Below are positions 31,999 to 64,000 of a DNA stretch of 64,000 bases, piece after piece. Where the stretch lies: assembly GCA_037074765.1 (NCBI GenBank), contig JBAMDO010000135.1, positions 80,729 through 144,728 of the forward strand. Reading direction: 5' to 3'. The DNA is from Mansonella perstans. Taxonomy: Eukaryota; Nematoda; Chromadorea; Rhabditida; Onchocercidae. The position numbers and the translations under genes were made by a program. The notes beneath the pieces were generated by a model that did no database searches, was not told where the DNA came from, and worked only from the letters and a program-made list of their open reading frames with translations. Every line of letters begins with the position of its first letter. The first letter of the stretch is position 1.

Positions 31999-32530
31999 TT
32001 GAACTGTGTGTGAGGGCACAAACCTTCTATATCTTATTCACTTTCGATGGTGCACTTTGTATTGATGCATTTCTCTGACTCAACTTTGCTTGCATAATTA
32101 AATTTTATTGCGCAAGCACTAATACAAGACACAGTCTAATATAAAATAACTCAAAAATGAGCGAAACACACAGGAGAATTAATCGGAACCGCTTGATGAT
32201 GGAATAAAAGGGCAAAGTAAAGAGCAAAAAGAAACTGTCAAATGATAATGTAAAAGGATTGATGATAAAAGATAAAGCTTTTGGGTAAGCCACTGTTTAT
32301 TGCGAGATAAGTGCGTTTGGCTTAAACCATTTTCACATGACCTTTGGACATCAACCAGAAGATAACTGTTTTAACTTTTCTTGATAATCGTACATAGAGT
32401 GTTTAAGAACAAAAATGACAAAAAGTGACTTTGTTATAAGCGAGAGATTCCTTACAGCATGCCGACGGTGCATAATTTGGACAAAGAATTTATCAAATCA
32501 TTTGTTTCATAAGCATTTTAGTTTGAAACA
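31966..32530 (-). mobile_element. BEL/Pao-type LTR (apparently solo) at the outer end of the left arm
   Basis: Begins TATGAAATATCTC and ends ..TTTGAAACA; it shares end motifs and internal order (GAAGTCTTG, GGCACAAACCTT, GCGCAAGCACTAATACAA on the plus strand, CATTTGTTTCATAAGCATTTTA near the right end) with the LTRs at 38900-39430 and 54512-55086. Sense orientation (that of pol in the other copies) is minus. The matching copy at the outer end of the right arm starts at about 63503 and is cut by the window end. Open frames inside it (for example 32105-32293, -) are not genes. Confidence 0.7.
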
Positions 32531-34130
32531 ATTGATACTAGAAGTTGCATTGTAACCGAAAATTTTCCGACAACACACACATCTGAAAATCTTTTATAAA
32601 TTTTTTACAGATTTTAAGAGGTAATCTATCACTCTGTGGATTCGCACATAACTTATTTGCTTATTGCATTTGATTTATCTATTAAATAAATTTCATTTAT
32701 CTTTCAAACTGACTTAAAATGAAAGAACTATCATCAAAAATTCTAAATAAAGGAACGAAATTTTTTTCTCAAATATTAATTCAATTAAGAAAGAATTTTC
32801 CACATTAAAATGGAAAAACTTTTTTCAAGTTAGCAGGATGAAATATCATATCATGTTGATTATTATCTTCGGGATTTCGCGAGTTTTCATGATGGTTTTT
32901 GAGGAGAACAATTTTTCAATATTATAAATCATAAGAAAAAGTCAGCTGATGTTTCTCTAGGACAAATCCTCTTAACGTTTCTATATCTATTTTTAAGCCT
33001 TCCGGTTTCTTCTTCGGACAGATCGTACGGAACAAACTAAAATGAATTAAAAACTGGGTTTTTTTTAGTTTTTAAAAAATTTCTTGCTATTTATTAAAAT
33101 ATTACTTAACAGGTGTGAAGGTTAGGATATGCCGAATCAATCTTTACGATCAGTTTTGCAAATGTTCCATTCACCAAATCGTATCCGTTTCACATTTCTC
33201 TTTCTTCAAATTTCATAAGTTGCTCTTTAAAAGCATTCATTAGTACTATCATATGCTACACTTCAATGACATTATTCGTACGCTATTAGCTAATGTGTAA
33301 TGTATACATATAATTTGATCGCTCGGCAGTTTTTTAATATATGACATGTACTGGCTAATTATCAGAAAATCTATTGATCCCACGTCATTCCTGAAATCTT
33401 CTCAAATCAAGCTTCAGCTAATAGCGCTTTCTTTAAGCTATTTGTAAAATAGTCCTTAATCATTTCTTTTATATAAGCACTTATATATTTCTTGATTATA
33501 AATTTCTAAATAATCCTAGCATCATAAAGATGATTCATGTTCACAAACAAGTATATTGTGAAATTAATTGTGAATGAAATTGTAAATTAGTAAGTTAGTG
33601 TAAATTAATGTAGATTAAACTAAACTTTCATTTGTTATTAGCGTCGAGATTTGACACTTGAATTACAAAAATTTGTATCTCTCTCAACAGGATAAAATTG
33701 CTTAAAAATGAATTATTCACTTCAGTTTTTTTCACGTAATGTGATTCAGCTGCAGATGGATGACAAAAATAGAGTAGGAAGATGAAAATAAGTTATAAAG
33801 TGAAAAAATTTAAAAAAAATTAAAATTCATCTTCTATTTATTATACATAATGCGTGAGTATGAAAATAATGCAAAAATTGAGAATAATGAAAAAAATGGA
33901 AAACTGACAGTTGATATTCCAGCTCATTTGACAACTCGATTCGCGCTATTTTTTTTCTAAAACATCTATAATTTATGTTTTATTTTTAGAACGTTTGGCA
34001 ACTGCAATTAAAATTCATGCATGAAATATTTAAGTGAATTTGAATATTCTTTCGGATTTTCATAACGATTGTCCTAAAATACAGCAAGTCGAACAAAGTT
34101 AATTTAAAATGTCCACTAGGATTATAGTGA
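32531..34130. other. Intergenic part of the left arm
   Basis: No supported gene. The same sequence in inverted form occupies about 61880-63500, so neither copy has acquired or lost an ORF here. Confidence 0.5.
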
Positions 34131-34136
34131 ATGATA

Positions 34137-34328
34137 TCATTGAATGCAAATATAGTCCAATATTTTTTGTGCAGCATATATTTTGTTCAGGATATTCAAT
34201 ATATCTTTAAGTAACATCAGTCCATCAGCCCATGATTTTCCTGGAGGCAAGTTTTTTTTTTTTTTTTTGCTCATCCTGTAACTAAACATACTAATAAAGC
34301 CCGTTTCCGCTTGATTCCTTGTTTTCAT
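34137..34328 (-). pseudogene. Exon-like segment (RNQAETGFISMF...), homologous to 34574-34676 in inverted orientation
   Basis: A frame of 63 codons on the minus strand begins MKTRNQAETGFISMFSYRMS, runs through a poly-Lys stretch encoded by poly-A, and ends DYICIQ. The plus-strand segment at 34574-34676 encodes RNQAEIDLISMFAHRPSKKK. Two similar peptides in opposite orientations about 250 bp apart suggest an old local inverted duplication of an exon. The right-arm counterpart (61685-61870) differs by two lysine codons. Function unknown; no complete gene model. Confidence 0.35.
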
Positions 34329-34573
34329 GAGATCATGGACTGATGAACATATATCAAAGATTTCAATTTTTGTATGCTAATTAACTAGCACATCAAAAAA
34401 TCTAGCATTAGTTAACAAATATTTCATGTTTATCATGCAGTAATCTTAATCTTTGTATATCCATGCATTATATGATGCATATCAAATAAATCGTTAATTA
34501 ATAGGAAGATGATTTTTGTGTTTATTTGTTAATCAGTGTTAGATTTTTGATGTAATAATTAATGATTTTCTAG

Positions 34574-34676
34574 GAGCGAGAAATCAAGCAGAAATCGACT
34601 TAATCAGCATGTTTGCTCACAGGCCGAGCAAAAAAAAATTGATTGTTGAATATCCTGAGCTAATATATACTGTTTA
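34574..34676 (+). pseudogene. Exon-like segment (RNQAEIDLISMF...) after a TTTTCTAG acceptor
   Basis: After TTTTCTAG|GA the frame reads ARNQAEIDLISMFAHRPSKK and stops at TAA after VEYPELIYTV. It parallels the minus-strand segment at 34137-34328. It might be a terminal exon of an unknown upstream gene, but I cannot find the earlier exons. Confidence 0.3.
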
Positions 34677-34895
34677 AAAATCATAATAGTACGTAGACGT
34701 ACATTTTTTTATATTGTATTGCAAGGTTATTAGTTATTTTTCATCGCATTGAAAGGCTAATTGAGATTACTGTAAGGTAAAACTTGAAATATTATTTTAA
34801 ACTTCTTGCAATTTTGTTTATTATTGATCTTTTTACTTTTATTTATCAGTATTATTGACTGTAAATTACTGAAACCAGTAAGCTTCAGGTATATT

Positions 34896-37150
34896 ATGGG
34901 TGTTGATCCATGTACGGAAGCAAGTGAGTTGGCTCACAGCACAGTATTTAATTCTATTCTTCTTACTGAAACTGTTTTATCAGCTACAGCAATTGCTCTT
35001 GAAATATGGGTAATGTTAAAAACAACAAATCGTATTTTGTTACATCAAAATACTCGAATTTTGCTTATCGTACATCAACTATGGCTGGTTTCTCATTGTG
35101 CTGCAAGGTTATTGTTTTAAATATTTCAAAAATGAAAAAATTTTCCATGAATAGTAAAATAACAATATAATATTCATAAATTCTATCAGATCATTCAGGT
35201 GGTTCAATCAGTTAATCATTTGTATGTTGTGAAAAGATAAACAAATGTACAAAAATTTGGAGGAATTTCTATAGGCGTTGTAAGAGTGAAAGAGAAACTT
35301 GGAAGTTGCATTAAAATGAAATAGAATAGGAGAGGAATTAATTTGATTATCATTATCGCTCATTATCACAATCAGAATTCCCGAAATCTCCCTTATAACT
35401 TTCTTAACATCTTAATTTCAGTGATACTGTGGAATACAAAAACTTCATTTTGAAATTTTTTTTCTAGTCATTTTACGATAGAAAAAAGTTAAAATACTTC
35501 AAAAAACAATGCCAATTGTCCCTTGGCATCTATTTATTATTTCATTTTAGAATATTTGCCCATACGTATGTGTTGATAGGATATCGGAAGACTTATGCTG
35601 ATAATTGTGGATATATGAAATTTCCATGGGAATGTTTTATGATGCGAACACCGATTACTTTGACACTATTCTTAAATGCGGCATCGTTACCTGCAATAGT
35701 TGTGGAGCGAACTATCGCTACATACTTTGCAGCAAAATACGAAAAATTTGGCAAAAGCATCGCTGTTATGCTTATTATAATGCAAGTATGTATGAAGAAT
35801 TTAATTTTGCCTTAAACAATTTCGAAATATTTTTAACTCATTAAATAATTTGCAGATATTACACAATCTGAGCTTTAATTCCGTTTATATTATTGAAATG
35901 ATGAAAAAAGCTTCTAGCTAGTTCCTTGAACCATTTTTAAAACAACATAAAACTTGGAAAGAATAATAAAAACTTTTATATTACCACACAGCCAGTCCTA
36001 GGTTAGCCTCAAATACCAACAAAATTTGAAGATGTTTTGTAATTTTGTCATTTTAGCTAGCTATTGGTTTTGGAAGTTTCGCGTTTCTTGCTAGCAATTT
36101 TTCATTATTCAGTTCAAAGAAAATGATTTACTGCTCTACAGCGAATAAGGGAAATATACTGAAATCTGCTATTCTCTTCGGATTTCACGCAATTATTGAA
36201 ATCATCTCTTCTTTGAGCATTCCAATTTTGATTTTTATCAATAAGGCAATTTTCACTTATAAATACATGCATTAACAGATCAATTAATTGATTAAGTGAT
36301 CAATCAACTGATTAATTTAATGTTGTTAATCCCAAATTATGCTATCTTATGCATGCGTCGTACATTTTTGAAACTAAAATTTAAACTAAACTGGAAACGA
36401 GATTCTTTTACTTTCACTATCACGTCAACCTGTCACAAGTTATCATGTAACTGATAATTTATTCAGAAATTTCGTCTTAACAAAATTCACGTCAACCTGT
36501 CACAACGTTATCAGATCACAGAAAATATAACTTCACTTCGAACATTAGCACCAATGCTGGGATTTCATTCTTTATTTCTGGCATTTTATTTGGGCGCACT
36601 ATTTGTGTATTTTGCTGCTGGGATCGAGTTTAACCACAAACAATTTGCTTTTTTCGTGGAAGGTTCATTTTCTCTCTCTTAAAATTTTACTCGCTTTGTC
36701 AGACACACAAAGACCATTACAATAACCATAATTGAAAATTTTTTTTTTTAATTGAATAAAATATATGAATAGCCAGCAACAGACAAATATGATTATGCAG
36801 TAATGAAATTTATTATTGCCAGCATGAAATATTGCTGAATAATCGATGTTATATCGAATTTCTAAAGTTTTGTCATTACCTTAGAATTAGTCCAATTACT
36901 GAAAAATTGACCATTAATATGGGAAAATATTTCTACATTTGAGTTATGTGAAAACTTTCATTCAAATTCAGCTGTACAACAAACCCCGCTATATGCATTA
37001 AGTTTACCGATTGCAATAGTATGGACAGAACAACATGTCAAGAAAAGTATCGCAGATGAGCGCCAGAAGGCTATACGATTAAGTGGTCAAGAAGCAGCTA
37101 ACCATTACTTTGTATCTATCTTCATGCATTTTTATCATTTAATTTTATGA
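34896..37150 (+). CDS. Srab-type chemoreceptor (7TM GPCR), left-arm copy, five exons
   Basis: Exons 34896-35107, 35551-35785, 36057-36245, 36467-36662 and 36972-37150 give 336 residues, a usual Sra/Srab length. The ATG lies 7 bases after TAAGCTTCAG, a trans-splice-like acceptor, so I start there and not at the upstream in-frame hydrophobic run. Seven hydrophobic segments follow. Family hallmarks: FAHTYVLIGYRK after TM2, WECFMMRTPI in TM3, ERTIAT at 123-128 followed by YEKFGKSIAV, QRYQITENITSLRTLAP before TM6, and the C-terminal SGQEAANHYF. Such receptors act in chemosensory neurons in C. elegans. Junctions 1-2, 2-3 and 4-5 are GT-AG in phase; intron 3 has no GT donor before the in-frame stop and fits only AAG|GCAATT, a GC-AG intron. 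If that donor is not used the protein would end after TM5. The gene points toward its inverted twin. Confidence 0.8.
36421..36514 (+). repeat. Short direct repeat across the exon 4 acceptor of the chemoreceptor
   Basis: CACGTCAACCTGTCACAA followed by (C)GTTATCA occurs at 36421-36444 in intron 3 and at 36488-36513 in exon 4, 67 bp apart. Only the second is in the frame that encodes HVNLSQRYQ. The right arm has the same pair. Confidence 0.85.
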
Positions 37151-38085
37151 ACGAACTCAAGTAGAAAGAATCCATTTTAAAAAAAAAATGAAAAAACCTT
37201 ATTTGTATGGAAAAAAAAGAAGTGGCTTAGTATGGGATAATAAGAAAGACAGAATGTCGATTCAAATGACAAATTAAAAAGGCTTCAATTGAATCTTATA
37301 GCTCAATTTGGATTTAACCTTAGCAAATTTTAAAATCTTCTATGATATCAATATTTCTATTTAAACAGCTACAAACTTTTACTGCTTTATTACTTTTGCC
37401 TCTTTCTTCAGCTATTGACTTTTCTTTATATTCATTTCATTTCTTTGTTTATTTATATTATGTATTATTAATTACAGTCAAGTTATTGTTCATTTCAAAA
37501 TTATTAATTGGATAAAATTAATTAGACAGCTATTCAGATATTTGCTTAGCTTCTTTATTAACATAACCATGGAATGGATATATCAAAACAATAAAATTTC
37601 ATAATTTATATTTTTCAGACTCTCTTCGAAGGATCAGCAATAAAGAACACTAACAAAGTGCAACAAAAATGACTTCCCAACAGTAGATGTACTTGAAAGG
37701 AAATAAACAGTTGAAAATTTGATGAAGTAAAAAGTATCATAAATTTGATTGGTGGCACATATTTGATATAAATAAAGATGTTGTAAGTGGTATTTAAGCC
37801 GGAAGATAATTGCTTTGACGATATTGTAATACTTAAATCTTTGCTTCATAGTTTTCTTTCGATATTATTTAATTGATGTCGGTAAACAACGAATGTTTTG
37901 CCGTTTATTGTACAGATATTTTCAAATTTTTTTTTTTACTGCCAACGCTTTCTGGATATGAACTTCAAATGCATAAGGAAGTGAGATCGACATGAACAAA
38001 GAATATTTCGATAGTAATATTATACTGTAACTTTTTGGCATTTTTGTTGCTTTCCTTCTATCCAGTGGTTATTGTCGTTATTGTT
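37151..38085. other. Inner part of the left arm; no gene
   Basis: Downstream of the receptor gene. Near-identity with the right arm stops at about 37712; beyond that only diverged homology is seen. No supported exon. Confidence 0.5.
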
Positions 38086-38175: not shown

Positions 38176-38209
38176 AGCACGCAACACGATGTTTGTTGCA
38201 GTACTAAAT

Positions 38210-38345
38210 TCGAAATGCTTTTTTGAAAAAGACGGATCTTAATTAAAAGAAAAGGCTCTGGTCTCAATTATCGATAACTCAAATTCCAAACCTTTAACGA
38301 TTTTTGACAGTTTAAAGGAGTGATTAGCTCCGATACGCATATGTA
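38210..38345. repeat. Segment repeated in inverted form at 54264-54400
   Basis: GAAATGCTTTTTTGAAAAAGAC...CCTTTAACGATTTTTGA...GGAGTGATT(A/G)GCTCCGATACG; the reverse complement at 54264-54400 shares the same order of motifs with moderate divergence. Confidence 0.75.
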
Positions 38346-38899
38346 GTAAATATTGAAAAAAAATTCTTTTTTTTTTGATTAGAACCGTTCAGAAAACAGT
38401 GGATAGGTAATACAGCAGTCAAAAATTATAGAATTTAATAAATTGTTGAATAAAACAACAAATGATAAGCAAGTAAACAAAAAAACAATGAAACGTATTA
38501 AATTTGAAGAATTTTGAAAGATTAGTCTTCAAATGATAACAAAATGATTTGGTGAACAAAACTTGTTAACAATTCCCTTAAGAATCACATACTGAAAAGT
38601 AACATATATTGTAATGTAAGTCCAGAAGTATTATGTTTATCGATTTCTAATGTTCCAAAGACAGCCATTTATTTTTTTAGGTTATGATATCACTTGAATT
38701 TATCTTACTTTAATTCAACTTTTCATAATGCATTTTTGTAAAGTATTTGGACAGATGATGTTGGAGGCTCGTAAATCAATCAGTACATTTCTCGGACATA
38801 TGGACACTCAATTCTTGTCGATAATTAATCCATCAAAATTGTTCGATTACCGTAATTCGACAAATTATGTGTTGCAAAATCGGTTAGCGATCGCACTGT

Positions 38900-39430
38900 T
38901 GTGAAGTATCTCCTGTGAATGAAGTCTTGCGGTTGAACTGCCTGTAAAGGTACAAACCTTTTGCACAAACGCTTTTCGATAGGAGGACCTTGTTTTTCTG
39001 CTTTTCTCAGCCTCAGTTCGGATTTAGGGAATTAATTTTTATTGGGCAAGTACTGATACAATATAACAAAAAGTAACAATAAATGAGTGAAACGGTGGGG
39101 AGAATTAATCGAAAGCGCTTTAACAAATAATAATGAAATAAAAGGGAAAAGTGAAGAGCAAAAACAAACTGTCGAAGGATGATATAAAAGGATTGATAAA
39201 AAAGGATAAAGCTTTTTAGTAGACGTCACATTTTATAGTGGAGATAAGCAGGTTTGGCTTACAACATTTCAACATGACCTTTGGACATCAAGCAGAGGAT
39301 GAGATATCAAAGGTTACAATATTCTGGCTTCGTTATAAGTGAGAGGTTCCTTAGGATGTGAGGACGGTGTATAATTTTGGACAAAGAATTTATCAAATCA
39401 TTTGTTTCATAAATACTTTAATTTGAAACA
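38900..39430 (-). mobile_element. BEL/Pao LTR (3' LTR of element 1)
   Basis: TGTGAAGTATCTCC at the left end and ..ATTTGAAACA at the right end match the other LTRs. With pol on the minus strand at 39431-41480 this is the 3' LTR. The matching 5' LTR is not found, so the element is truncated. The frame at 39032-39229 (-) is an LTR-internal artefact. Confidence 0.75.
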
Positions 39431-42140: not shown

Positions 42141-42142
42141 AG

Positions 42143-42508
42143 ATCTCCCGATTAGAAAATACACATTTTTTGGGACTATTTCCATGATATGCTTCTGGAA
42201 ATTAATACATTGCCCAGCTGATCACTTCTTACTGCTAGCTTTTGAAACTATTTCATTTTTAGTTTTAAATTAGTGACAAATTGGTCAATTAAAGGTTTTA
42301 CATATTCATATCGCAGTTAAGTTAATTATAATCCCTGCAAATCGAATAAAACACTTTAAATCGCTATCAGCAGCAATTGATTGTGACGACAACTAGATAG
42401 TCGTAAAACAATTAGAATTCTTCAAATTTCAAACTTAATAGTTAACTTACTGTCTGGTGAAAGAGCAACATAAAACTAAACAATATCACCAAATTTATCA
42501 GCTCATAT
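42143..42508 (-). pseudogene. Inverted fragment of the cuticlin-like ZP gene (end of exon 4, intron 4, start of exon 5)
   Basis: The reverse complement aligns with 51410-51780: GAGCTG(C/A)TAAATTTGGTGAT, TTTTATGTTGCTCTTTCACC, the GACAGTAAGTTAAC splice donor, AAGTGATCAGCTG, and the TTTCCAGAAGCATATCATGG acceptor with the exon 5 start are all present in order. The intron is kept, so it arose by DNA duplication and not by reverse transcription. It carries a stop (GTTGAATTT in the gene, GTTTAGTTT here) and lacks all other exons, so it is dead. Confidence 0.9.
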
Positions 42509-42517
42509 CTAAGATAC

Positions 42518-42830
42518 TTGAAGATGAGGGAAATTTATTGAAATTTATAAAAGAAATAAAAGTTTTGAAAAGTGAAATGAAGTGTTGTTAGCAGTTATTT
42601 CAGTAAATTATTTAATTTTTTTTATTCAAAAAAACAAAGAAACTCGATAACTATATTTACTGATCAACTGATTTTTAAATTAATTTCATTTTTCTTTGTA
42701 TAAATTTGTTACTAATATTGAAATAAATCTAAATGCTTAAAAAGCTAATTTAAAAACGTTAATTTTTCTTGTATATTTGAATGTAAAATTTGCATGATTT
42801 TTAGAATTTTATATCAAATAATTAATGGTT
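42518..42830 (+). repeat. Duplicate of parts of 29997-31030
   Basis: 42518-42610 matches 29997-30090 and 42660-42830 matches 30880-31030, both in the same orientation. The exon between them (30281-30489) is absent, so this is a partial, internally deleted copy. Confidence 0.75.
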
Positions 42831-49740: not shown

Positions 49741-49766
49741 TCGAAATATTTCAGAGTGACAAAGTT

Positions 49767-52700
49767 ATGGTACCAGTAAAGGCGCTGCTGATCTTATTTA
49801 TACTAGCAAATGTCATCAATGCCGAAGGTTTTGGTATGTAAAAAAGTTATACAGCTATATTTGATTTTATACATATTTGAGAAATTCCATCGTTAGATTT
49901 TTTAGCTTTTAGTGAAAAAAAAAATTGATACAAGGAAATTTAAATTCCTATCGGAATTCTTCACTGAACAAAATTTCAAATTGATCTTTAGCGTGAACTT
50001 CGGCTGAACTTCGATTTAATTGAATTTGCAGTGCTGGATTTATATGATTATTTTTAAAATTGAACCAATAAATAAATTCTCACATTTTATGAATAAGCCA
50101 AACTTAATGAATATTTTAATTAAACTCAATCTTATCCTTAACATTATTGAAATAAATTATTCATGCATCAATAATTTATTAATGCTACATTGAACTGATA
50201 AATTGCGTAATTTGCAGTTGGGAAAATCTTATTGTCTTCTACAGTTCATTCAATCAATATAACATTTTTGGTAATAAGTAATATTCATCTACATTTCTAA
50301 CAGTAAATTACTGTTTACATCAAATTCACCTAAGCATTATTTTATTAATTCAATTCCAAATTTATTTGGTCAATTTCATATTAGCGATGTTTCAGTTGAA
50401 GAAGTTTCCTGTACCGCTGATGCTATAAATGTTGTTTTAAATAAGACCGATCCAGATGTTCAGCGCTGGATATCAGATCCAAAAGCTCAACCAGTTGCTT
50501 ATGTTTATGAGCATAAAGCTCGTCCACCATGCGGTACAGCAATGAAAAAAGGAAATTTGATTAATTATAACTTTACAATTCCATATGGCAATCATTGTGA
50601 TGTACATTTAACTGATTTGGTTTGTTGTATATTCCTTTTTGGATTATGAAAATGTTTTCAGATTTAAAAAATTATGCCTGAACATTGTTAGTTTTGAAAT
50701 GGAACATTTATTTCTTTATATCATTTGCACAATATATAATTTTGAAATTCTTTCATTTCTTATTTCGGCTGAAAAACGATAACTTGCTATTTTTGACATT
50801 GTTCTAGTTTAAAAAAACTTTCAGCTTTAGCAATTAAATGAAATAACAATACAAATAACTAAATATCTTTTATAATTTAAAAATTTTTAATTTGTAAAAG
50901 AAAATTCAATTTTTTCATAGTTTTAAAACCAAAATCTTCCTAGTTTTCTTTTTTACATTGTTTTATTTCGGATTTAAAAAAAATCCTTTTTTTCAAAATT
51001 TTTAGGAACCAAATTATCGTAATGCTGAGACGACAATAGCTCTTGAAGATAATGCTGATACTGCGCCATCGAAAACAATACGCGTTAATCATGTATTCTG
51101 TTTATATACCAGAAGTGTTCAAACTATAAGATTTAATGATATATCAAGGTTATTTTGAATATAAAATTTGCTTCAATTCAGTGATTTCATTCTTATCATC
51201 AAAATTTATCATTGTAATACAATTAATAATAGTTTGGAAAAGTCAATTCAATCCTAAAAATTCTATCTTAAAATCTTTGTGAAGGAAATGAAATTCCAGT
51301 AAGTCAGTAATTTGCATTACAGTGGTCATCAAGTGGTTGCATCAACTGGTGGAAAACCAAAGCCCAAAGTTGAAATGATCTTTCGTAGCATTGATGGGCG
51401 ACCTCTACGAGCTGCTAAATTTGGTGATATTGTTGAATTTTATGTTGCTCTTTCACCGGACAGTAAGTTAACAATTAAGTTTAAAATCTGACGAATTCTA
51501 ATTGTTTGTGCGATTATCCAATTAATATTGTTAATACAAATTAATTGTTGCTGGTAATGATTTGAAGTACTTTATTCAATTTACAAACAATATAATTAAT
51601 TTAACTACAGTATGATTATGTAAGACTATTAATTGGCACCAATTTATCAATTTAAAACTAAGAATGAAATAGTTTTAAGAGCTAGCAGTAAGAAGTGATC
51701 AGCTGTTCAATGTAGTAATTTCCAGAAGCATATCATGGAATTAGTCCTAAAGAATGCATGTTTTCTGATCGAGAGGATATGTCATCACCTGATGCTAAAC
51801 ATTTAACATTTGTCCAAAGCAGGTTAATCAGGTTTTGACAGATATGAATTTTTAATTTAGCCAATAATAAATTATTGTGTTAATCTTTGGTTATTTATAC
51901 AAATGCATATCCAACGATTAACAAGTTTTAGTTAGTTTTATTCATTGTAATAATAATTGGAAAAATTTATTATATAAATTCGGTTCTACGATTTTTTAGT
52001 TGTCCAGTAGACGAAATGAGTGAAATCATTGATCCGCTGTCAAATGTCAACGAAGAGGTGTATTTTTCAAAATTTAAAACATTCCGTTTTGGCAATCAAT
52101 CGACAGTATTTGCTCATTGTACCGTCCAAGTTTGTCTCACTACCGCAGAATGTGCACAGGTATTAAAATTTTTGCATTATTTTCTACTGAAATATTAAAT
52201 TAATCTTGCTTATACTTTTTCTGAACTGCAATTTAGTGTTTCGGAAAAGTGCTTCGTTTTGACTGAGATTCAAAAATTAATTGGAATGTGATTTTGAAAA
52301 AGTTAAACAAACTTTAGCATAATTGAAATATTCATATGATCGAAGTGCTTATTAATACTGTTTTAAAAAAAGAATCATGCAAAGATTCTCCAACTTAATT
52401 AACTTTTTTTTTGAAAAAAAAAATTCTGGATTATAAAATTACCAAAAAAAAAATTCCTTCTATTAAATTGGATAAAAAATTAAATCATATTAAATTGTAT
52501 TATTTTTTGATAGACAATAAATTTTTTATTTTATTCTACTGAAACATTAATTTCATCATAGAAATGTTTCAAACGAATCAGCAATTCCAATTTAACTGCT
52601 GAGCGATTACGTTTTCGACATAGACGTCAATTAGACAATAATTATGATGCTATGATGACTCGTAAGCAAAATGGTTTCAATGAAATTTCATTAACACGAC

Positions 52701-53722
52701 CATTGACTATATTGGATGATATAGAAAACGTTGAAGGTTGTAGTACTTTTTTCTTTCTTTCTCTTTCTCTTTCTCTCTCTTTTTGTTCCGCAAAGTGTTA
52801 TCTCATACAATCTGACAAATATTCACTGTCTTCGAATTCGAAAATGTCAAAATGTGATCTTTTGCGTATTGAATGGTTTCTACTACGGCATTAAATTATT
52901 TAAGAATGAAATTATCGTTTATTAATTGAAATATTTGTTTTCGATATTTCTTTTCAGTAACTGATAAGAAGGTGGAACAATGTCTTATTAACAATGCTAT
53001 CGTACCATTACCAATCATTATCCTTATCTTATCTCTTTCAATCTTATCAATTATTTGCCTCATTGGATTGACATTTACTCTAAGACGATTGGCCACTTAC
53101 AGAAAACTTGCTCCATACAGTTTTGGCATATACAGGTAAGTAATATTGATGAAACAGATTTCGATTTGTTATAGTTACTCTAAATATCATTCAGAATGCC
53201 ACCAATTAAAATTTTTAATTTTGATTATTAAAAATTAATTTATAAAACAGCTATAAGTTGTCATTCAAAAATAGAAAAGAAAACATAAAGGTAAACAATT
53301 TCTTTATTTTTCCTTTGTTTTGTATCTTATAAAGTTAAAATGTAGTGTTAACTGTTATTGCTATTGCATTTCGCATCAGGAATCATGAAAATCTAATCGG
53401 AGAAGGGAAAAATGTAAAAATAATCCAAAACTAAAATCTTCATCTTGAATAAATGCCGAAACATCGTATAATTCTAATGTTAAAGTTTTACTGTGAAAAA
53501 AAGCTCCTGAAGTGAAGTTATTCTTAATTATAAACTATCTTAATTAGGTCTAAATCATTTGATTGCTTCTGCAGTTCTTATTCTGGACCAACAGTGCCGC
53601 TTCCAATACGTTCGCTAACCGATTCTGCAGCACGTAATTTGTCAAATAACGGTAATCGAACAACTTGGATGGATCAATTATCAACGAGAACTGAGTATCC
53701 GTATGTCCGAGAAATGTACTGA
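49767..53722 (+). CDS. Cuticlin-like ZP-domain membrane protein, nine exons, 443 residues
   Basis: Exons 49767-49833, 50396-50619, 51006-51148, 51323-51462, 51726-51822, 52000-52159, 52562-52736, 52958-53135 and 53575-53722; all junctions are GT-AG and in phase. The ATG follows ATATTTCAG by 12 bases (trans-splice-like). Residues 1-19 are a signal peptide (MVPVKALLILFILANVINA). A ZP domain spans roughly 27-280 with cysteines in family contexts (EEVSCTADAI, RPPCGTAM, GNHCDVHL, NHVFCLY, PKECMFSD, SSCPVDEM, AHCTVQVCLTTAECAQKCF). RHRR at 296-299 is a furin-type site as in cuticlins. A single TM helix lies at about 350-372, then a cytosolic tail ending VREMY. After cleavage the ectodomain would polymerise in the cuticle or apical matrix. 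I cannot assign a specific cut gene. Part of exons 4-5 also exists as a dead inverted copy 9 kb upstream. Confidence 0.95.
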
Positions 53723-54260
53723 TTGATTTATAAGCTCCAACACCATCACCTATCCAAATTCTTTACAAAAATGTATTATGAAAATTGAATGAAGTAAGAT
53801 AAATTCAAGTGATATCATAATCTAAAATAGAGATTGTCTTTTGCATCAGAAATCAATAATCATGATACTTTTTGACTCAGTATTGCATTACAATATGTAT
53901 TACTTTCCATTTTAGATATACTGATATGATCCTTAAGGAAATTGTTAATTAGTTTTGCTTACCAAATCATTTTGTTATCGTTTGAAAATTAATCTTTCAA
54001 AATTCTTCAAATTTAATCTATTAAATTGTTTTTTTTGTTCATTTGCTTATCATTTGCTGTGTTTATTCATTATCAGTTCCTTAAATTTTATAATTATCGA
54101 CTGTTTTATTACCTGTTCCTGTTTTCTGGAAGTTTCCTAAATCAGAAAAAAAATTTTTTTTAATATTAACTATCGCATTTGCCAATTTTTTTTAATATTT
54201 ACTATCGCATTTGCCTTGAGCAACATCCCATTGCAGCTTTCAAAGTAAAAATTTCCCTGC
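53723..54260. other. 3' flank of the ZP gene; nothing further seen
   Basis: AT-rich, with a near repeat of TTTTTTTTAATATT(A/T)ACTATCGCATTTGCC at about 54155-54215. Confidence 0.45.
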
Positions 54261-54263
54261 AAC

Positions 54264-54511
54264 GTATCGGAGCCAATCACTCCTTTAAACTTCAAAAATC
54301 GTTAAAGGTCAGGAATTTGAGTCACTGATAATTGAGATCAGAAGCGTTTTCTTTTTCCACTACAGTCTTTTTCGAAAAAAGCATTTCGAGTTTTGCATTG
54401 CATGGTCCCTACCTTTGAATGATAAAACTTCCTGACTTAGTTGCAATAATCATTTTCAAATCAATGAAAAACATTATAAAACTGGCATTTTTACAGCTAA
54501 ATTACATCTGC
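54264..54511. repeat. Repeat-derived segment (inverse of 38210-38345, and direct match to 57600-57725)
   Basis: 54264-54400 is the reverse complement match of 38210-38345. 54410-54511 (GATAAAACTTCCTGACTTAG...AAATTACATCTG) matches 57620-57722 in the same orientation, so similar DNA lies on both sides of element 2. Confidence 0.7.
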
Positions 54512-55086
54512 TGTAAAATATCTCCTGCAGAAGAAGTCTTGTCGTTGAACTATGTATGAAGGCACAAACCTTTTATTGCTTACTCACTTTCAAAGGAAGG
54601 ACTTTATATTGATGGTTGTTTCAGTCTCAAACTTCGGTAATTAAACTTCATTGCGTAAGTACTAATACAATGGAACAATCTAATACAAAATTACGATAAT
54701 AAAACTGAGCGAAACGGTGCGAAGAATTAATGGAGAGTACATTAACAAATGATGATGAAAAAAAATAAAGTGAAGAGCAAAAAGAAGCTGTCGAAGGATG
54801 ATGTAGAAGGATTGCTGACAAAAGACTGAGTTTTTGGATAGATAGCGGAAATAAATAGGTTTGGCTACAACATTCCAGCATGACCTTTGGGTATAAGCAG
54901 AGGATAATTATTTTAACTTTTCTTGACAGTCGTATGTAGGGCGTTAAAGACCAAAAGTTATAATATTCCGATATAAATTGACTTGATTATAAGTGAGAGC
55001 GTTCCTTACAATGTGCTGACGATGTATAATTTTGGACAAAGGATTTATCAAAGCATTTGTTTCATAAGCATTTTAATTTAAAACAA
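54512..55086 (-). mobile_element. BEL/Pao LTR (3' LTR of element 2) with an SL1-like site
   Basis: Left end TGTAAAATATCTCC, right end ..TTTAAAACA, aligned with the LTRs at 31966 and 38900. Pol remnants on the minus strand lie to the right, so this is the 3' LTR. Positions 54626-54647 on the minus strand match SL1 at 20 of 22 bases. Confidence 0.75.
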
Positions 55087-57330
55087 CTGATACTAGAAAG
55101 ATTACCTTAGGAGTTATTGTTATAGTATTGCATTTTTAATTGATTGTTGGAATTTTGTGCTCTTTTTGTGATTACTAGAGCAGTTTCCCGTTCTCTATTT
55201 TCTGGTAAACAATTTTCAGTGAACAGTTGTACAATTTCCATGAGGATATCCATTACTTCTCTTTGAATGGGAATTTTAATAGACGGTGAACAAAAAATGG
55301 ATCTAACCAAATCAATTTCCATTGTGGATATTCGCATGTTGGTTCGAGCAATCTTGGTTGATTTCATATTATGTTCCATGATTCCATCAAAACAATTCCA
55401 ATGATAAGGAGCGTTGAATTGGAGGTTGGGTATTCGTTTGCACTTTTCTTGTGATGTTGCTTGCACCATAGTACAAAAATTAGAATCATTAAGATTTGGC
55501 TTTGTATTACTGAGTTTAACTTACTGGTGTTTTGAATTCGTCGCTGAGTAGCATTCCTAGTTCTTGAGGCTATAAGATTGCATTTCAATGGGATGGTATA
55601 TCGTGCAGAATACTTTTATCTGATTCTTAATCAATTTTAGTACCAGTGTTGATCGGATGCAAGCAAATTATTCGTTAATACGATTTAGTCGTTTTTCTTA
55701 CTCTTGTGCTCGACGCAATGACACAGATCTGAAGTCCCAGGTAATTCAGTCTACAGGTTCTTCTTGTTGATCTGATTTATCCATTAGATTTCCAGAAGCT
55801 GTCGGTTGAATTCCCGAATTTTCTTCAGCACTTACTTCTAAGGAGTATAGTGCATCTATTACACATTTGATTTGCTGAACCGACCCCCACCTATATGTGA
55901 AAAGTGTATTATCGCGCTTGGATGAGAGGCAACATTTGCAACGATTCGTCTTTTTTGTTTTCAAATTCTTCTGTTCACTGATATTCCCATTTGGGCCATC
56001 CGCTTTCAGGTCATGTTAACCACATGGGGGTTCTTCTTACTACAGCTTGTGTTGTCCAAGCTTTGCGGGAGAAAGTTCTTTAGTTGCTATATTAACTGAA
56101 TTATCTTCATATCGAAAGGAAAGATTTACCTTTCGTATTTCTACCCGGTTGTATGAATTTAGGTAGTATTTTTGATCGATTTTGTATCCAGTGTAACTCG
56201 CATTTCGAATCATACTACAACACAACTGGGATTTTTTCAAATCCAATTGCTAGCAGTTTCAACTATGGTGTATTCACATCTTTGATTGGAGCAGTTCTTG
56301 GTTTGGTGAAGAGCATTTTGTAATTTCTTTCGTTGATATATTTGTTTAAAATGTATACCGTCGCTGAATACACAATGCGTTCGTGAAATCTAAGAGCCTG
56401 TGGCTAGCTTTGGTATCTCGATAATATCCGCGAGCCATTTCTTTGTCAGAGATCACATGCTTTAATGTAATCATCAAGGACTTGATCCCAAGAATGGTCT
56501 CTTTCCCATAAGCTTTGGAAAATAATTTGAATTGGATCATTGCATGGACCAAAAATCCTAAAAGATTGTATTGCGAAGCAACGAATGGCAAGACATTTCT
56601 TTCAGTGAGTGTCACAATTAATCAAAAGGAACCGTTAAGCAACCGCTGTTATTTTTATTACCGTGCATATTCTTGCAACAAATGTATCTGATGTCATTTT
56701 ATATCACTTATATTCTTGCAACAATATCTCATGTCATATCATTTATATTCTTGCAACAAATGGCCTCATACCATTTTATATCATTTTCGAACATTGTTAG
56801 GGATGGATTTGTTAAACACTAGTTATATATTATATTTTTGCATTCAAACTATACTATCTCAGTCCTTGGCCAAGAGCAAAAACTGGCTGTGTCCTTATTA
56901 CAATCAAATATGCCTTATATGTGAAGTATTTCATTTTGTTACTTTCTCTGTTGTATAGCAAAAAGGATAACATACTAGAATTCTTTATATAACTGTTCTA
57001 GGCTTCATTAGATTAAGCCTTTGTAAAATTTCGGGAAGAAATTCTAATACTTCATATCTCAATTTTATCCCGAATTCCTCAAATTAATGCATAAATTCTG
57101 TGCATTATCAGTGGCAAAGAGGTTCGGTAAAAATATACTACGGACATTGAAACCGATACCAAAAAATTTTTTCCAACTGGATCCGGAAGGCAGAAACAAC
57201 TGATCGCTTGATTGTTGATATGAGTGAGCACATTTGAGAGTTTTTATTTGAACCAGTCAATGAAAATCTCAACCAATCAAAAAACGTTTTGATTGATCTA
57301 TTTTTGGAATATTTCTTATAAATTAAGCCA
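55087..57330 (-). pseudogene. Degenerate BEL/Pao pol, element 2
   Basis: At 56615-56346 the minus strand reads NVLPFVASQYNLLGFLVHAM then IQFKLF, recognisable as the BEL/Pao pol region after the reverse transcriptase (usual form: VLxFVASxYDPLGxLxP). Further on come 55964-55746 (ALYSLEVSAEENSGIQPT), matching the end of the integrase region in element 1, and 55469-55107 with the same MEIVQLFTENCLPENRERET segment. The DUF5641 core is missing. Many stops and frame shifts; not functional. Same orientation as element 1, about 15.6 kb away. Confidence 0.72.
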
Positions 57331-57848
57331 AATGAAAGCTTCATGGATTGAGCCAAATGAAACTTAGGTTGCCACAAATTTCGTGTATTTGTCATATTCG
57401 GGAAAAAAAATTGTCGTGTATTTGTCGTTTCCACGAAAAGTAATTGAAAAGTAATTCAACAATGCAATGAAGCAAACTAACAACAGCTGAAATAGGGATA
57501 ATAGCAAAATTTTATACGGATATGCTGTCAATTATCTAATCTATCCCAACGAAACTTTGGATTATATTTGACATGTTAACATTCTTACATGGAAAAAAGG
57601 TTGAACGATGCTCTCTATCTGTGACTGATAAAACTTCCAGACATGATTGCAATAATTCCTCGTTTTCGAATCAATGAAGAACATCATAAAATTGGGATTA
57701 TTACAACCAAAATTACATCTAGTGGATAGAGAAAAAAAATTCGTTTAGTTAAGCAATATCCAATATTCAGTGTTTGATAATTATCAGTTTGATTGTTATT
57801 TGGAATACTACTTCAAACTCACATTAAATGATACTTTGAGTACTTGGA
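57331..57848. other. Repeat-derived stretch at the inner end of the right arm
   Basis: 57600-57725 matches 54410-54511 directly. The remainder shows no gene. Confidence 0.4.
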
Positions 57849-58859
57849 ACCCTTCAAGTAACAATAACGACGAATAACCCACTTGAAAGAAGGAAAGCAA
57901 CAAAGATGTCAAAAAGTTACCTTATAAGATTACTGTCGAAATATTTTTTTGTTCATGTCAATCTCACGCACTTATGCATTTGAAGATCACATCCAGAAAA
58001 CATTTACAGTAAAAACAGTCTTTGACGATATTTTTACAATAAAAACAACACATTCTTTGCTTACCGACATTAATTAAATAATTCTAAAGGAAAACAATTA
58101 ACTCGTCAACTGTCTATCGGATTTGAACTTGCTGCCTATCAAAAATTACAGTTGATAGCGTTTTCTGGTTTGAAATATTACTTGCAACATTTTTAATTAT
58201 ATCAAATATGTGCTACCAATCAAATCTACGATGCCTTTCTACTTCATCAAATTTTTTCTCGTGTATTGGTTTTCAAATTCACTTGAATTACAGTATCCAC
58301 TGTTTATTTCCTTTCAAGTACATCTACTGTTGGGAAGTCATTTTTGTTGCACTTTGTTAGTGTTCTTTATTGCTGATCCTTCGAAGAGAGTCTGAAAAAT
58401 ATAAATTATGAAATTTTATTGTTTTGATATATCCATTCCATGGTTATGTTAATAAAGAAGCTAAGCAAATATCTGAATAGCTGTCTAATTAATTTTATCC
58501 AATTAATAATTTTGAAATGAACAATAACTTGACTGTAATTAATAATACATAATATAAATAAACAAAGAAATGAAATGAATATAAAGAAAAGTCAATAGCT
58601 GAAGAAAGAGGCAAAAGTAATAAAGCAGTAAAAGTTTGTAGCTGTTTAAATAGAAATATTGATATCATAGAAGATTTTAAAATTTGCTAAGGTTAAATCC
58701 AAATTGAGCTATAAGATTCAATTGAAGCCTTTTTAATTTGTCATTTGAATCGACATTCTGTCTTTCTTATTATCCCATACTAAGCCACTTCTTTTTTTTC
58801 CATACAAATAAGGTTTTTTCATTTTTTTTTTAAAATGGATTCTTTCTACTTGAGTTCGT

Positions 58860-61115
58860 TCATAAAATTAAATGATAAAAATGCATGAAGATAGATACAA
58901 AGTAATGGTTAGCTGCTTCTTGACCACTTAATCGTATAGCCTTCTGGCGCTCATCTGCGATACTTTTCTTGACATGTTGTTCTGTCCATACTATTGCAAT
59001 CGGTAAACTTAATGCATATAGCGGGGTTTGTTGTACAGCTGAATTTGAATGAAAGTTTTCACATAACTCAAATGTAGAAATATTTTCCCATATTAATGGT
59101 CAATTTTTCAGTAATTGGACTAATTCTAAGGTAATGACAAAACTTTAGAAATTCGATATAACATCGATTATTCAGCAATATTTCATGCTGGCAATAATAA
59201 ATTTCATTACTGCATAATCATATTTGTCTGTTGCTGGCTATTCATATATTTTATTCAATTAAAAAAAAAAATTTTCAATTATGGTTATTGTAATGGTCTT
59301 TGTGTGTCTGACAAAGCGAGTAAAATTTTAAGAGAGAGAAAATGAACCTTCCACGAAAAAAGCAAATTGTTTGTGGTTAAACTCGATCCCAGCAGCAAAA
59401 TACACAAATAGTGCGCCCAAATAAAATGCCAGAAATAAAGAATGAAATCCCAGCATTGGTGCTAATGTTCGAAGTGAAGTTATATTTTCTGTGATCTGAT
59501 AACGTTGTGACAGGTTGACGTGAATTTTGTTAAGACGAAATTTCTGAATAAATTATCAGTTACATGATAACTTGTGACAGGTTGACGTGATAGTGAAAGT
59601 AAAAGAATCTCGTTTCCAGTTTAGTTTAAATTTTAGTTTCAAAAATGTACGACGCATGCATAAGATAGCATAATTTGGGATTAACAACATTAAATTAATC
59701 AGTTGATTGATCACTTAATCAATTAATTGATCTGTTAATGCATGTATTTATAAGTGAAAATTGCCTTATTGATAAAAATCAAAATTGGAATGCTCAAAGA
59801 AGAGATGATTTCAATAATTGCGTGAAATCCGAAGAGAATAGCAGATTTCAGTATATTTCCCTTATTCGCTGTAGAGCAGTAAATCATTTTCTTTGAACTG
59901 AATAATGAAAAATTGCTAGCAAGAAACGCGAAACTTCCAAAACCAATAGCTAGCTAAAATGACAAAATTACAAAACATCTTCAAATTTTGTTGGTATTTG
60001 AGGCTAACCTAGGACTGGCTGTGTGGTAATATAAAAGTTTTTATTATTCTTTCCAAGTTTTATGTTGTTTTAAAAATGGTTCAAGGAACTAGCTAGAAGC
60101 TTTTTTCATCATTTCAATAATATAAACGGAATTAAAGCTCAGATTGTGTAATATCTGCAAATTATTTAATGAGTTAAAAATATTTCGAAATTGTTTAGGG
60201 CAAAATTAAATTCTTCATACATACTTGCATTATAATAAGCATAACAGCGATGCTTTTGCCAAATTTTTCGTATTTTGCTGCAAAGTATGTAGCGATAGTT
60301 CGCTCCACAACTATTGCAGGTAACGATGCCGCATTTAAGAATAGTGTCAAAGTAATCGGTGTTCGCATCATAAAACATTCCCATGGAAATTTCATATATC
60401 CACAATTATCAGCATAAGTCTTCCGATATCCTATCAACACATACGTATGGGCAAATATTCTAAAATGAAATAATAAATAGATGCCAAGGGACAATTGGCA
60501 TTGTTTTTTGAAGTATTTTAACTTTTTTCTATCGTAAAATGACTAGAAAAAAAATTTCAAAATGAAGTTTTTGTATTCCACAGTATCACTGAAATTAAGA
60601 TGTTAAGAAAGTTATAAGGGAGATTTCGGGAATTCTGATTGTGATAATGAGCGATAATGATAATCAAATTAATTCCTCTCCTATTCTATTTCATTTTAAT
60701 GCAACTTCCAAGTTTCTCTTTCACTCTTACAACGCCTATAGAAATTCCTCCAAATTTTTGTACATTTGTTTATCTTTTCACAACATACAAATGATTAACT
60801 GATTGAACCACCTGAATGATCTGATAGAATTTATGAATATTATATTGTTATTTTACTATTCATGGAAAATTTTTTCATTTTTTGAAATATTTAAAACAAT
60901 AACCTTGCAGCACAATGAGAAACCAGCCATAGTTGATGTACGATAAGCAAAATTCGAGTATTTTGATGTAACAAAATACGATTTGTTGTTTTTAACATTA
61001 CCCATATTTCAAGAGCAATTGCTGTAGCTGATAAAACAGTTTCAGTAAGAAGAATAGAATTAAATACTGTGCTGTGAGCCAACTCACTTGCTTCCGTACA
61101 TGGATCAACACCCAT
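58860..61115 (-). CDS. Srab-type chemoreceptor (7TM GPCR), right-arm copy, five exons
   Basis: Exons in transcript order: 61115-60904, 60459-60225, 59953-59765, 59543-59348 and 59038-58860. These mirror the left-arm exons base for base in length. The translated exon 1 and exon 2 are identical to the left copy, and splice sites, the trans-splice-like acceptor before the ATG, and the GC-type donor of intron 3 (AAG|GCAATT) are all conserved. No stop or frameshift was seen, so both copies look intact and would give the same 336-residue receptor. Expression of the two could only be told apart by the few flanking differences. Confidence 0.8.
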
Positions 61116-61334
61116 AATATACCTGAAGCTCACTGGTTTCAGTAATTTACAGTCAATAATACTGATAAATAAAAGTAAAAAGATCAATAATAAACAAAAT
61201 TGCAAGAAGTTTAAAATAATATTTCAAGTTTTACCTTACAGTAATCTCAATTAGCCTTTCAATGCGATGAAAAATAACTAATAACCTTGCAATACAATAT
61301 AAAAAAATGTACGTCTACGTACTATTATGATTTT

Positions 61335-61437
61335 TAAACAGTATATATTTAGCTCAGGATATTCAACAATCAATTTTTTTTTGCTCGGCCTGTGAGCAAA
61401 CATGCTGATTAAGTCGATTTCTGCTTGATTTCTCGCT
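61335..61437 (-). pseudogene. Right-arm copy of the RNQAEIDLISMF exon-like segment
   Basis: Mirror of 34574-34676, same reading (ARNQAEIDLISMFAHRPSKK). Confidence 0.3.
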
Positions 61438-61684
61438 CCTAGAAAATCATTAATTATTACATCAAAAATCTAACACTGATTAACAAATAAACACAAAAAT
61501 CATCTTCCTATTAATTAACGATTTATTTGATATGCATCATATAATGCATGGATATACAAAGATTAAGATTACTGCATGATAAAACATGAAATATTTGTTA
61601 ACTAATGCTAGATTTTTTGATGTGCTAGTTAATTAGCATACAAAAATTGAAATCTTTGATATATGTTCATCAGTCCATGATCTC

Positions 61685-61870
61685 ATGAAAACAAGGAATC
61701 AAGCGGAAACGGGCTTTATTAGTATGTTTAGTTACAGGATGAGCAAAAAAAAAAACTTGCCTCCAGGAAAATCATGGGCTGATGGACTGATGTTACTTAA
61801 AGATATATTGAATATCCTGAACAAAATATATGCTGCACAAAAAATATTGGACTATATTTGCATTCAATGA
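61685..61870 (+). pseudogene. Right-arm copy of the RNQAETGFISMF exon-like segment
   Basis: Mirror of 34137-34328 with a shorter poly-A, giving two fewer lysines (MSKKKNLPPG). The change in a homopolymer, kept in frame, is the main difference noted between the arms here. Confidence 0.35.
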
Positions 61871-61879
61871 TATCATTCA

Positions 61880-63500
61880 CTATAATCCTAGTGACATTTT
61901 TAAATTAACTTTGTTCGACTTGCTGTATTTTAGGACAATCGTTATGAAAATCCGAAGAATATTCAAATTCACTTAAATATTTCATGCATGAATTTTAATT
62001 GCAGTTGCCAAACGTTCTAAAAATAAAAACATAAATTATAGATGTTTTAGAAAAAAAAATAGCGCGAATCGAGTTGTCAAATGAGCTGGAATATCAACCT
62101 GTCAGTTTTCCATTTTTTTCATTATTCTCAATTTTTGCATTATTTTTCATACTCACGCATTATGTATAATAAATAGAAGATGAATTTTAATTTTTTTTTA
62201 AATTTTTTTCACTTTATAACTTATTTCATCTTTCCTACTCTATTTTTTGTCATCCATCTGCAGCTGAATCACATTACGTGAAAAAAACTGAAGTGAATAA
62301 TTTCATTTTTAAGCAATTTTATCCTGTTGAGAGAGATACAAAATTTTTGTAATTCAAGTGTCAAATCTCGACGCTAATAACAAAATGAAAGTTTAGTTTA
62401 ATCTACATTAATTTACACTAACTTACTAATTTACAATTTCATTCACAATTAATTTCACAATATACTTGTTTGTGAACATGAATCCATCTTTATGATGCCT
62501 AGGGATTATTTAGAAATTTATAATCAAGAAATATATAAGTGCTTATATAAAAGAAATGATTAAGGACTTATTTTACAAATAGCTTAAAGAAAAGCGCTAT
62601 TAGCTGAAGCTTGATTTGAGAAGATTTCAGGAATGACGTGGGATCAATAGATTTTCTGATAATTAGCCAGTACATGTCATATATTAAAAAACTGCCGAGC
62701 GATCAAATTATATGTTATACATTACACATTAGCTAATAGCGTACGAATAATGTCATTGAAGTGTAGCATATGATAGTACTAATGAATGCTTTTAAAAAGC
62801 AACTTATGAAATTTGAAAGAAAGGGAAATGTGAAACGGATACGATTTGGTGAATGGAACATTTGCAAAACTGATCGTAAAGATTGATTCGGCATATCCTA
62901 ACCTTCACACCTGTTAAGTAATATTTTTAATAAATAGCAAGAAATTTTTTAAAAACTAAAAAAAACCCAGTTTTTTAATTCATTTTTAGTTTGTTCCGTA
63001 CGATCTGTCCGAAGAAGAAACCGGAAGGCTTAAAAAATAGATATAGAAACGTTAAGAGGATTTTGTCCTAGAGAAAACATCAGCTGACTTTTTCTTATGA
63101 TTTTATAATATTGAAAAATTGTTCTCCTCAAAAACCATCATGAAAAACTCGCGAAATCCCGAAGATAATAATCAACATGATATGATATTTTCATCCTGCT
63201 AACTTGAAAAAAAGTTTTTCCATTTTAATGTGGAAAATTTCTTTCTTAATTGAATTAATATTTTGAGAAAAAAATTTCGTTCCTTTATTTAGAATTTTTG
63301 ATGATAGTTCTTTCATTTTTAAGTCAGTTTGAAAGATAAATGAAATTTATTTAATAGATAAATCAAATGCAATAAGCAAATAAGTTATGTGCGAATCCAC
63401 AGAGTGATAGATTACCTCTTAAAATCTGTAAAAAATTTATAAAAGATTTCAGATGTGTGTGTTGTCGGAAAATTTTCGGTTACAATGCAACTTCTAGTAT
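61880..63500. other. Intergenic part of the right arm
   Basis: Mirror of 32531-34130; no gene seen in either copy. Confidence 0.5.
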
Positions 63501-63502
63501 CA

Positions 63503-64000
63503 ATTGTTTTTCAAAACTAAAATGCTTATGAAACAAATGATTTGATAAATTCTTGTCCAAAATTATCCACTGTCGGCATATTGTAAGGAATCTCTTGTTT
63601 ATAACCAAGCCACTTTTTGTCATTTTGTTCTTAAACACTCTATGTACGATTATCAAGAAAAGTTAAAACGTTATCTTCTGGTTGATGTCCAAAGGTCATG
63701 TGAAAATGGTTTAAGCCAAACGCACTTATCTCGCAATAAACAGTGGCTTACCCAAAGCTTTATCTTTTATCAATCAATCCTTTTACATTATCATTTGACA
63801 GTTCTTTTTGCTCTTTACTTTGCCCTTTTATTCCATCATCAAGCGGTTCCGATTAATTCTCCTGTGTGTTTCGCTCATTTTGAGTTATTTTATATTAGAC
63901 TGTGTCTTGTATTAGTGCTTGCGCAATAAATTTAATTATGCAAGCAAAGTTGAGTCAGAGAAATGCATCAATACAAAGTGCACCATCGAAAGTGAATAAG
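63503..64000 (+). mobile_element. BEL/Pao-type LTR of the right arm, cut by the window end
   Basis: Mirror of 32033-32530. AATAAA at about 63925-63930 is followed by a diverged form of the SL1-like site. The frame at 63642-63929 is an LTR-internal artefact. Confidence 0.7.

What the first reader, a model, noticed from the sequence alone, without database searches (positions are those of the whole stretch)
32033..64000. Two ~6-kb inverted arms, the outer 5.7 kb nearly identical, flank a 20-kb unique spacer
Coding, intronic and intergenic DNA match over the arms with only small indels. Such similarity in non-coding AT-rich DNA implies a very recent duplication, continuing gene conversion between arms, or an assembly artefact. 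If real, it resembles the gene-bearing palindromes of sex chromosomes, and BEL/Pao-rich DNA is known from filarial sex-linked sequence, so sex linkage is a reasonable guess.
Basis: partly seen in the sequence, partly recalled or inferred. Interest (0 to 1): 0.85.

Follow-up and report, generated by a model that had tools for sequence, protein, structure and literature searches.

The report
Near-identical inverted chemoreceptor gene copies
In a filarial worm, two almost letter-identical copies of a chemoreceptor gene face each other about 20 kb apart, probably on the X chromosome, and abrupt drops from about 99.9% to about 78-82% identity at the edges of the copies suggest that old copies were recently overwritten from one another; raw reads are still needed to confirm the assembly.

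Summary
The inverted pair is in the assembly at the stated coordinates, as part of a larger cluster. Window position 64000 is the end of its contig, so the right arm is cut there. Contig C222 carries a copy reaching 1 kb further (left-arm equivalent 31032). Contig C488 carries about 1.56 related head-to-tail units.

Each arm holds one six-exon Srab chemoreceptor gene; the predicted protein is identical in left arm, right arm and C488. Most arm indels are one-base, confined to patches, typical of consensus error. Over 3,536 aligned core bases the arms differ by 2 substitutions, then fall to 77.5% at the inner edge; right arm and C488 share 4,384 bases with 4 substitutions, then fall to 82%. Such steps inside older homology favour recent gene conversion over simple recent duplication.

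The "unique" spacer has 71-87% old duplicates at both ends and a dyf-7 gene. Receptor, neighbouring transporter and dyf-7 relatives share X-sized contigs in D. immitis, so X linkage is likely, by synteny only.

Weak points: no reads; the right arm's outer 2.2 kb and a 1.2-kb left-arm patch are poorly supported.

The parts
31032..37714 (+). Left arm, full extent of the block shared with C222 (as far as C222 reaches) and, from 32033, with the right arm
   Evidence: 34170-37711 has 2 substitutions in 3,536 aligned bases against the right arm
58296..64000 (-). Right arm, cut by the contig end
   Evidence: 57446-61830 also matches C488 with 4 substitutions in 4,384
34896..37672 (+). Left-arm Srab chemoreceptor gene, six predicted exons, 341 aa, open frame
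   Evidence: Pfam PF10292 E 1.3e-38 for a slightly shorter splice; exon model, guided by filarial homologs
58338..61115 (-). Right-arm copy of the Srab gene; predicted protein identical to the left-arm copy
31140..31340 (+). Last coding exon of an SLC6 (sodium:neurotransmitter symporter) gene, the only piece of that gene found in the window; most of the gene's exons are on C222
   Evidence: tblastn with an A. viteae SLC6 protein: 13 hits on C222, 1 in the window
31958..32543 (.). Dispersed repeat in the left arm
   Evidence: 67-75% matches on 30 other contigs, a lower bound
63492..64000 (.). Same dispersed repeat in the right arm; the contig ends inside it
37715..38085 (+). Inner edge of the left arm, diverged from the right-arm counterpart
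   Evidence: 83 substitutions in 369 aligned bases, 77.5%
57860..58295 (-). Inner edge of the right arm (counterpart); near-identical to C488
38080..41721 (.). Stretches matching the right inner flank at 71-87%, rearranged; includes a copy of the dispersed repeat
53609..57315 (.). Stretches matching the left inner flank at 71-87%; includes a copy of the dispersed repeat and a sub-threshold Pao peptidase trace
49767..53139 (+). dyf-7 ortholog (ZP-domain gene) in the spacer, hand-spliced model
   Evidence: ZP-C domain on one exon; exons; 81-89% identical to filarial ZP proteins, one named dyf-7, and 55% to C. elegans dyf-7

Best explanation
This is a small, probably X-linked cluster of Srab chemoreceptor gene copies in a filarial nematode, with two copies in inverted orientation about 20 kb apart. 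The copies descend from older duplications whose unconverted parts are now about 20% diverged. Recent gene conversion between copies then overwrote blocks that contain the receptor gene, so that the arms look newly duplicated. Shown: the inverted pair in one contig, identical predicted proteins, abrupt identity steps, further copies on two contigs. Inferred: that conversion and not re-duplication made the identical blocks, its direction, and X linkage. The left copy most likely derives from a copy next to the SLC6 gene, because it carries only that gene's last exon.
For: Left against right arm: 2 substitutions in 3,536 aligned bases at 34170-37711, then 83 in 369 at 37715-38085; the step lies within a few bases in the alignment. 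The inner-edge piece (query positions 1-355) matched only the right arm and C488 among the 40 of 60 candidates scored. Right arm against C488: 4 in 4,384, then 71 in 387. C222 against C488 is a mosaic of 98-100% blocks and blocks of about 60-87%, with windows of 91-94% between. Only 1,026 of 3,545 core bases are coding, so selection on the protein does not explain the identity of the rest. Predicted proteins identical in left arm, right arm and C488. SLC6: 13 tblastn hits on C222, last exon only in the window. X linkage: D. immitis Srab (3 rows), SLC6 and dyf-7 all show a contig length of 27,526,700; A. viteae Srab, SLC6 and dyf-7 all show 12,729,914; two B. malayi Srab show 24,943,668. The D. 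immitis X is given as 28.2 Mb against 14.0-15.6 Mb autosomes, the B. malayi X as 24.9 Mb.
Against: No reads were available. On the outer side the left flank shows no convincing collinear homology to the C222 flank (best hit 37 bp, E 1.7e-4, inverted), so the boundary at 31032 looks like a duplication edge, not a conversion edge. C488 could have been made by unequal exchange. Each copy has stretches of poor consensus, so the arms may be closer still, or partly mis-joined. Other rows of the same searches sit on shorter contigs (for example a D. immitis Srab and SLC6 both on 5,307,330, a B. malayi Srab on 880,453) and say nothing about the chromosome. PMC10817185 warns that the D. immitis assembly it used was scaffolded on O. 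volvulus. PMC7302863 (passages) reports that B. malayi chemoreceptors lie mainly on chromosomes II and IV, so an X location is not the rule.
Confidence: 0.6

Rival explanations
1. Recent inverted duplication without conversion: a 6.7-kb block from an SLC6-linked copy was inserted in reverse about 20 kb away, beside an older diverged relative.
For: The outer boundary at 31032 cuts off the SLC6 gene and separates unrelated flanks; the arms are almost identical throughout.
Against: The inner boundary falls where diverged homologous sequence continues, and a second such step exists between the right arm and C488. Two coincidences would be needed.
Confidence: 0.2
2. Partial mis-assembly: the inverted receptor cores are real, but the right arm beyond about 61.83 kb is a chimeric extension; the right core would really lead into the C488 tandem array, and C222 would sit elsewhere in the cluster.
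For: C488 and the right arm agree to 61.83 kb and then part; the contig ends 2.2 kb later inside a dispersed repeat, with degraded consensus, some of whose variants equal the common base of other repeat copies.
Against: C222, a separate contig, differs from the right arm at only 4 columns over the equivalents of 32587-33960.
Confidence: 0.15
3. Pure artefact: only one receptor copy exists and the second arm is an assembly duplicate.
For: Near-identity; poorly corrected patch at 32715-33909 in the left arm; no reads to check.
Against: The two arms have different, diverged inner edges; C488 independently supports the right inner junction from 57446 onward and has a different outer part.
Confidence: 0.05

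Closest known systems
Gene-bearing palindromes of mammalian sex chromosomes (recalled; Rozen et al. 2003 seen only as a reference-list entry)
   Same: Near-identical inverted arms with genes, a spacer between them, likely sex-chromosome location, signs of conversion
   Different: Arms are short (6.7 kb), the locus also has tandem copies, the gene is a chemoreceptor; location is by synteny only
Inverted GSTT2 duplication of apes (PMC3375281, passages incl. parts of the abstract)
   Same: An old inverted gene duplication, 99.4% alike in humans, with gene conversion between the copies
   Different: Autosomal (human chromosome 22), 29 kb, vertebrate
Nematode chemoreceptor clusters (PMC2576165 and PMC7302863, passages)
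   Same: Srab genes form lineage-specific expansions and clusters; filaria are enriched in srab
   Different: The term gene conversion occurs 0 times in the main text of either paper as held; here inverted orientation and identity steps point to conversion

Membership tests
Srab chemoreceptor (Pfam PF10292) | Near full-length match above the curated cut-off | tested here: met
   133.2 bits against a cut-off of 21, residues 6-308 of 317
Srab chemoreceptor (Pfam PF10292) | Expression in sensory neurons and ligand response | not testable with these tools
   no expression data
Sex-chromosome gene palindrome | Inverted arms at about 99.9% identity carrying a gene | tested here: met
   2 substitutions in 3,536 core bases, gene in both arms, in the assembly as given; 98.8% counting indels
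Sex-chromosome gene palindrome | Location on a sex chromosome | tested here: inconclusive
   synteny of Srab, SLC6 and dyf-7 with X-sized contigs; no depth data in this species
Sex-chromosome gene palindrome | Arm-to-arm gene conversion | tested here: inconclusive
   sharp identity steps; no second species or population to prove it
Sex-chromosome gene palindrome | Arms of at least about 8 kb (a convention recalled from primate work) | tested here: not met
   6.7 kb for the left arm
SLC6 transporter gene on the C222 flank | SNF domain (PF00209) | tested here: met
   one exon above the cut-off, two below, three further pieces without a match; the 8 homologs of the spliced protein all carry PF00209

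The most novel reading that the evidence does not exclude
A small X-linked chemoreceptor palindrome in a filarial worm is kept identical by continuing arm-to-arm conversion, and the inverted arms let the dyf-7 spacer flip, so that natural populations carry both orientations. This would be a nematode parallel to mammalian X and Y palindromes.
Probability: 0.25. Interest if true: 0.7.

Novelty: new member of a known kind. Interest (0 to 1): 0.45.

Why it matters
If real, it shows that receptor copies in filaria can look newly duplicated because conversion overwrites them, which distorts estimates of gene age and copy number in draft parasite genomes. It also offers a compact, probably X-linked locus for measuring conversion; chromosome X of Brugia is reported to lack diversity (PMC8575316, abstract start in the listing). 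Even if partly mis-assembled, it is a worked case of telling consensus error from divergence in repeats.

Tried and rejected
Species identification: no own-species protein appeared among homologs (best near-full-length Srab 64%, SLC6 63%, dyf-7 89%). A COX1 family search of the genome gave 20 matches, none of them a clean mitochondrial gene as far as the table shows. None of the 22 assembly spans in Table 1 of PMC12693587 (section 8 read) is 75.73 Mb. I leave it as an unidentified filarial nematode.

Arm indels as evolution: mostly rejected, since they cluster by copy and are mainly one-base. A comparable control: the two C488 copies differ by 30 bases missing from the copy at the contig start against 1 from the other, with 8 substitution columns in that alignment.

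The cluster of 13 substitution columns at 32428-32525 as real divergence: doubtful. It lies in the last 0.6 kb of the contig within a dispersed repeat, which holds 24 of the 27 columns where the right arm alone differs. Several right-arm bases equal the common base of 12 other repeat copies aligned, others do not.

Missed-adapter read palindrome: rejected by reasoning, because a 20-kb spacer with different inner edges separates the arms.

Non-coding RNA in 30-64 kb: 0 Rfam matches at gathering threshold. Paper searches: palindrome + inverted repeat + nematode + gene conversion + X chromosome (5 papers); Caenorhabditis inverted-duplicate terms (4 papers, 2 papers); chemoreceptor concerted evolution (1 paper); filarial srab (2 papers). 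From the listings none appears to describe this locus; only open-licence papers are held, so absence from print is not shown. A find in PMC10817185 gave 0 for palindrom, inverted repeat and gene conversion. The whole text of PMC7291094 was read and adds nothing on this locus.

Protein tree of the arm protein and 25 of the 38 homologs: the arm is a long branch and its place is unsure. I left out 13 homologs, mostly short or partial, by no fixed rule.
Full report
What is there. The window is contig C135:80729-144728 of an unnamed 75.7-Mb, 539-contig genome, and its last base is the contig's last base. Self-comparison gives one long inverted pair: 32033-37714 against 64000-58296, 98.8% over 5,722 columns with 13 mismatches and 51 gap openings. 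The left block extends further: C222:1-5954 matches it back to 31032. Left of 31032 the window and C222 share no convincing collinear sequence (best hit 37 bp, E 1.7e-4, inverted), and the left flank 29000-31031 has no second full copy in the genome (4 matches, itself and three short ones).

More than two copies. A 1-kb arm probe finds five places: both arms, C222 at 98%, and two on C488 at 71%. C488 (13,766 b) holds about 1.56 head-to-tail units of about 8.84 kb; its two ends match each other over 4,933 columns at 99.3% with 30 gap openings and 3 mismatches. That fits a tandem array or an over-assembled circle; I cannot tell which.

Differences between arms are largely consensus error. Of 44 left/right gap events in the MAFFT alignment (which has 25 substitution columns against BLASTN's 13), 40 are one base and 35 lie in homopolymers. 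In the outer region, with C222 as third witness, 29 indel columns are one-base deletions in the left arm alone, all at 32715-33909; 12 indel and 15 substitution columns are odd in the right arm, 24 of these 27 in its last 0.6 kb; 8 substitution columns are odd in the left arm, and 1 indel column in C222. The right-arm end lies in a dispersed repeat found on 30 other contigs at 67-75% (a lower bound). Over the core 34170-37711 left and right differ by 2 substitutions and 4 gap events in 3,536 aligned bases. C222 is poor in the part of the core it covers (40 indel columns against the right arm).

Identity steps. At the inner edge the left/right identity falls from 99.94% to 77.5% (83 of 369). 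The inner-edge piece, query positions 1-355, matched only the right arm and C488 among the 40 of 60 candidates that were scored. Right arm against C488: 4 substitutions in 4,384 at 57446-61830, then 71 in 387. C222 against C488 alternates between windows of 98-100% and windows of about 60-87%, with some at 91-94%. Only 1,026 of 3,545 core bases are coding, so selection on the protein does not keep the rest identical. Blocks of near-identity set in about 20%-diverged homology are a usual mark of recent gene conversion (general knowledge); unequal exchange or re-duplication could mimic it.

Genes. The arm gene matches Srab, PF10292, at E 1.3e-38. A six-exon model (34896-37672; 58338-61115 in the right arm) gives the same 341-aa protein in left arm, right arm and C488. 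A family search of the genome gives 18 exon-level matches on 6 contigs, a lower bound that misses the C222 copy. Next to the arm on C222 lies an SLC6 transporter gene (13 tblastn hits); the window has its last exon only; C488 has some exons, with a stop codon in the last one in both units. The left copy is therefore probably derived from an SLC6-linked one. The spacer holds a ZP-domain gene, 81-89% identical to filarial ZP proteins and 55% to C. elegans dyf-7. The spacer's outer parts, within 38.1-41.7 and 53.6-57.3 kb, match each other at 71-87%; part of this is the dispersed repeat, but 38197-38893 matched only its partner in the spacer.

X linkage. In D. immitis three Srab rows, one SLC6 row and the dyf-7 row show a contig of 27,526,700 b; in A. 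viteae one Srab, one SLC6 and the dyf-7 row show one of 12,729,914 b; two B. malayi Srab rows show one of 24,943,668 b. The listings give lengths, not chromosome names, so sharing of a contig is read from equal length. Other rows sit on shorter contigs and are uninformative. PMC10817185 (sections 6 and 7 read) gives the D. immitis X as 28.2 Mb against autosomes of 14.0-15.6 Mb, with a warning that this assembly was scaffolded on O. volvulus; PMC7181701 (passages) gives the B. malayi X as 24.9 Mb. The C. elegans dyf-7 row shows a longest contig of 17,718,942 b, which I recall as the length of its X. Because the Dirofilaria and Brugia X chromosomes gained different autosomes, a gene on both most likely sits in the ancestral part. 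No row named B. malayi was listed for dyf-7 or SLC6. A. viteae chromosome sizes were not looked up. This is synteny, not a depth test.

What remains weak. No reads were available. The right arm beyond 61.83 kb could be a chimeric extension, and the left-arm patch 32715-33909 is weak consensus. The core inverted pair does not depend on the right arm's outer part: C488 supports the right inner junction (57446-61830) independently.

Novelty. Gene-bearing inverted repeats kept alike by conversion are known (GSTT2, PMC3375281, passages; sex-chromosome palindromes, recalled). Local expansion of Srab genes is known (PMC2576165, PMC7302863, passages). I file it as a new member of a known kind.

Noticed in passing
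window 6072-6626: Tandem repeat whose shifted copies are 84-92% alike (shifts of about 87 and 145 bases), about 0.7 kb from an open frame with collagen repeats at 7359-8015 (-).
   Followed up: no
C488 (L011, L012): 13.8-kb contig with 1.56 copies of an 8.84-kb receptor-plus-transporter-fragment unit; tandem array or circular molecule.
   Followed up: partly
window 42506-42790: Two short pieces of the left flank (29985-30082 and 30883-31006) recur side by side in the spacer at about 85%; one ends 26 bases from the left arm boundary.
   Followed up: no
G000 C25:105373-106254 and C25:371383-372093: COX1-like stretches with in-frame stops, possibly nuclear copies of mitochondrial or endosymbiont DNA.
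   Followed up: no
window 39418-39858 and 55107-55520: Two related open frames on the minus strand in the inner flanks, with no confident Pfam family.
   Followed up: partly
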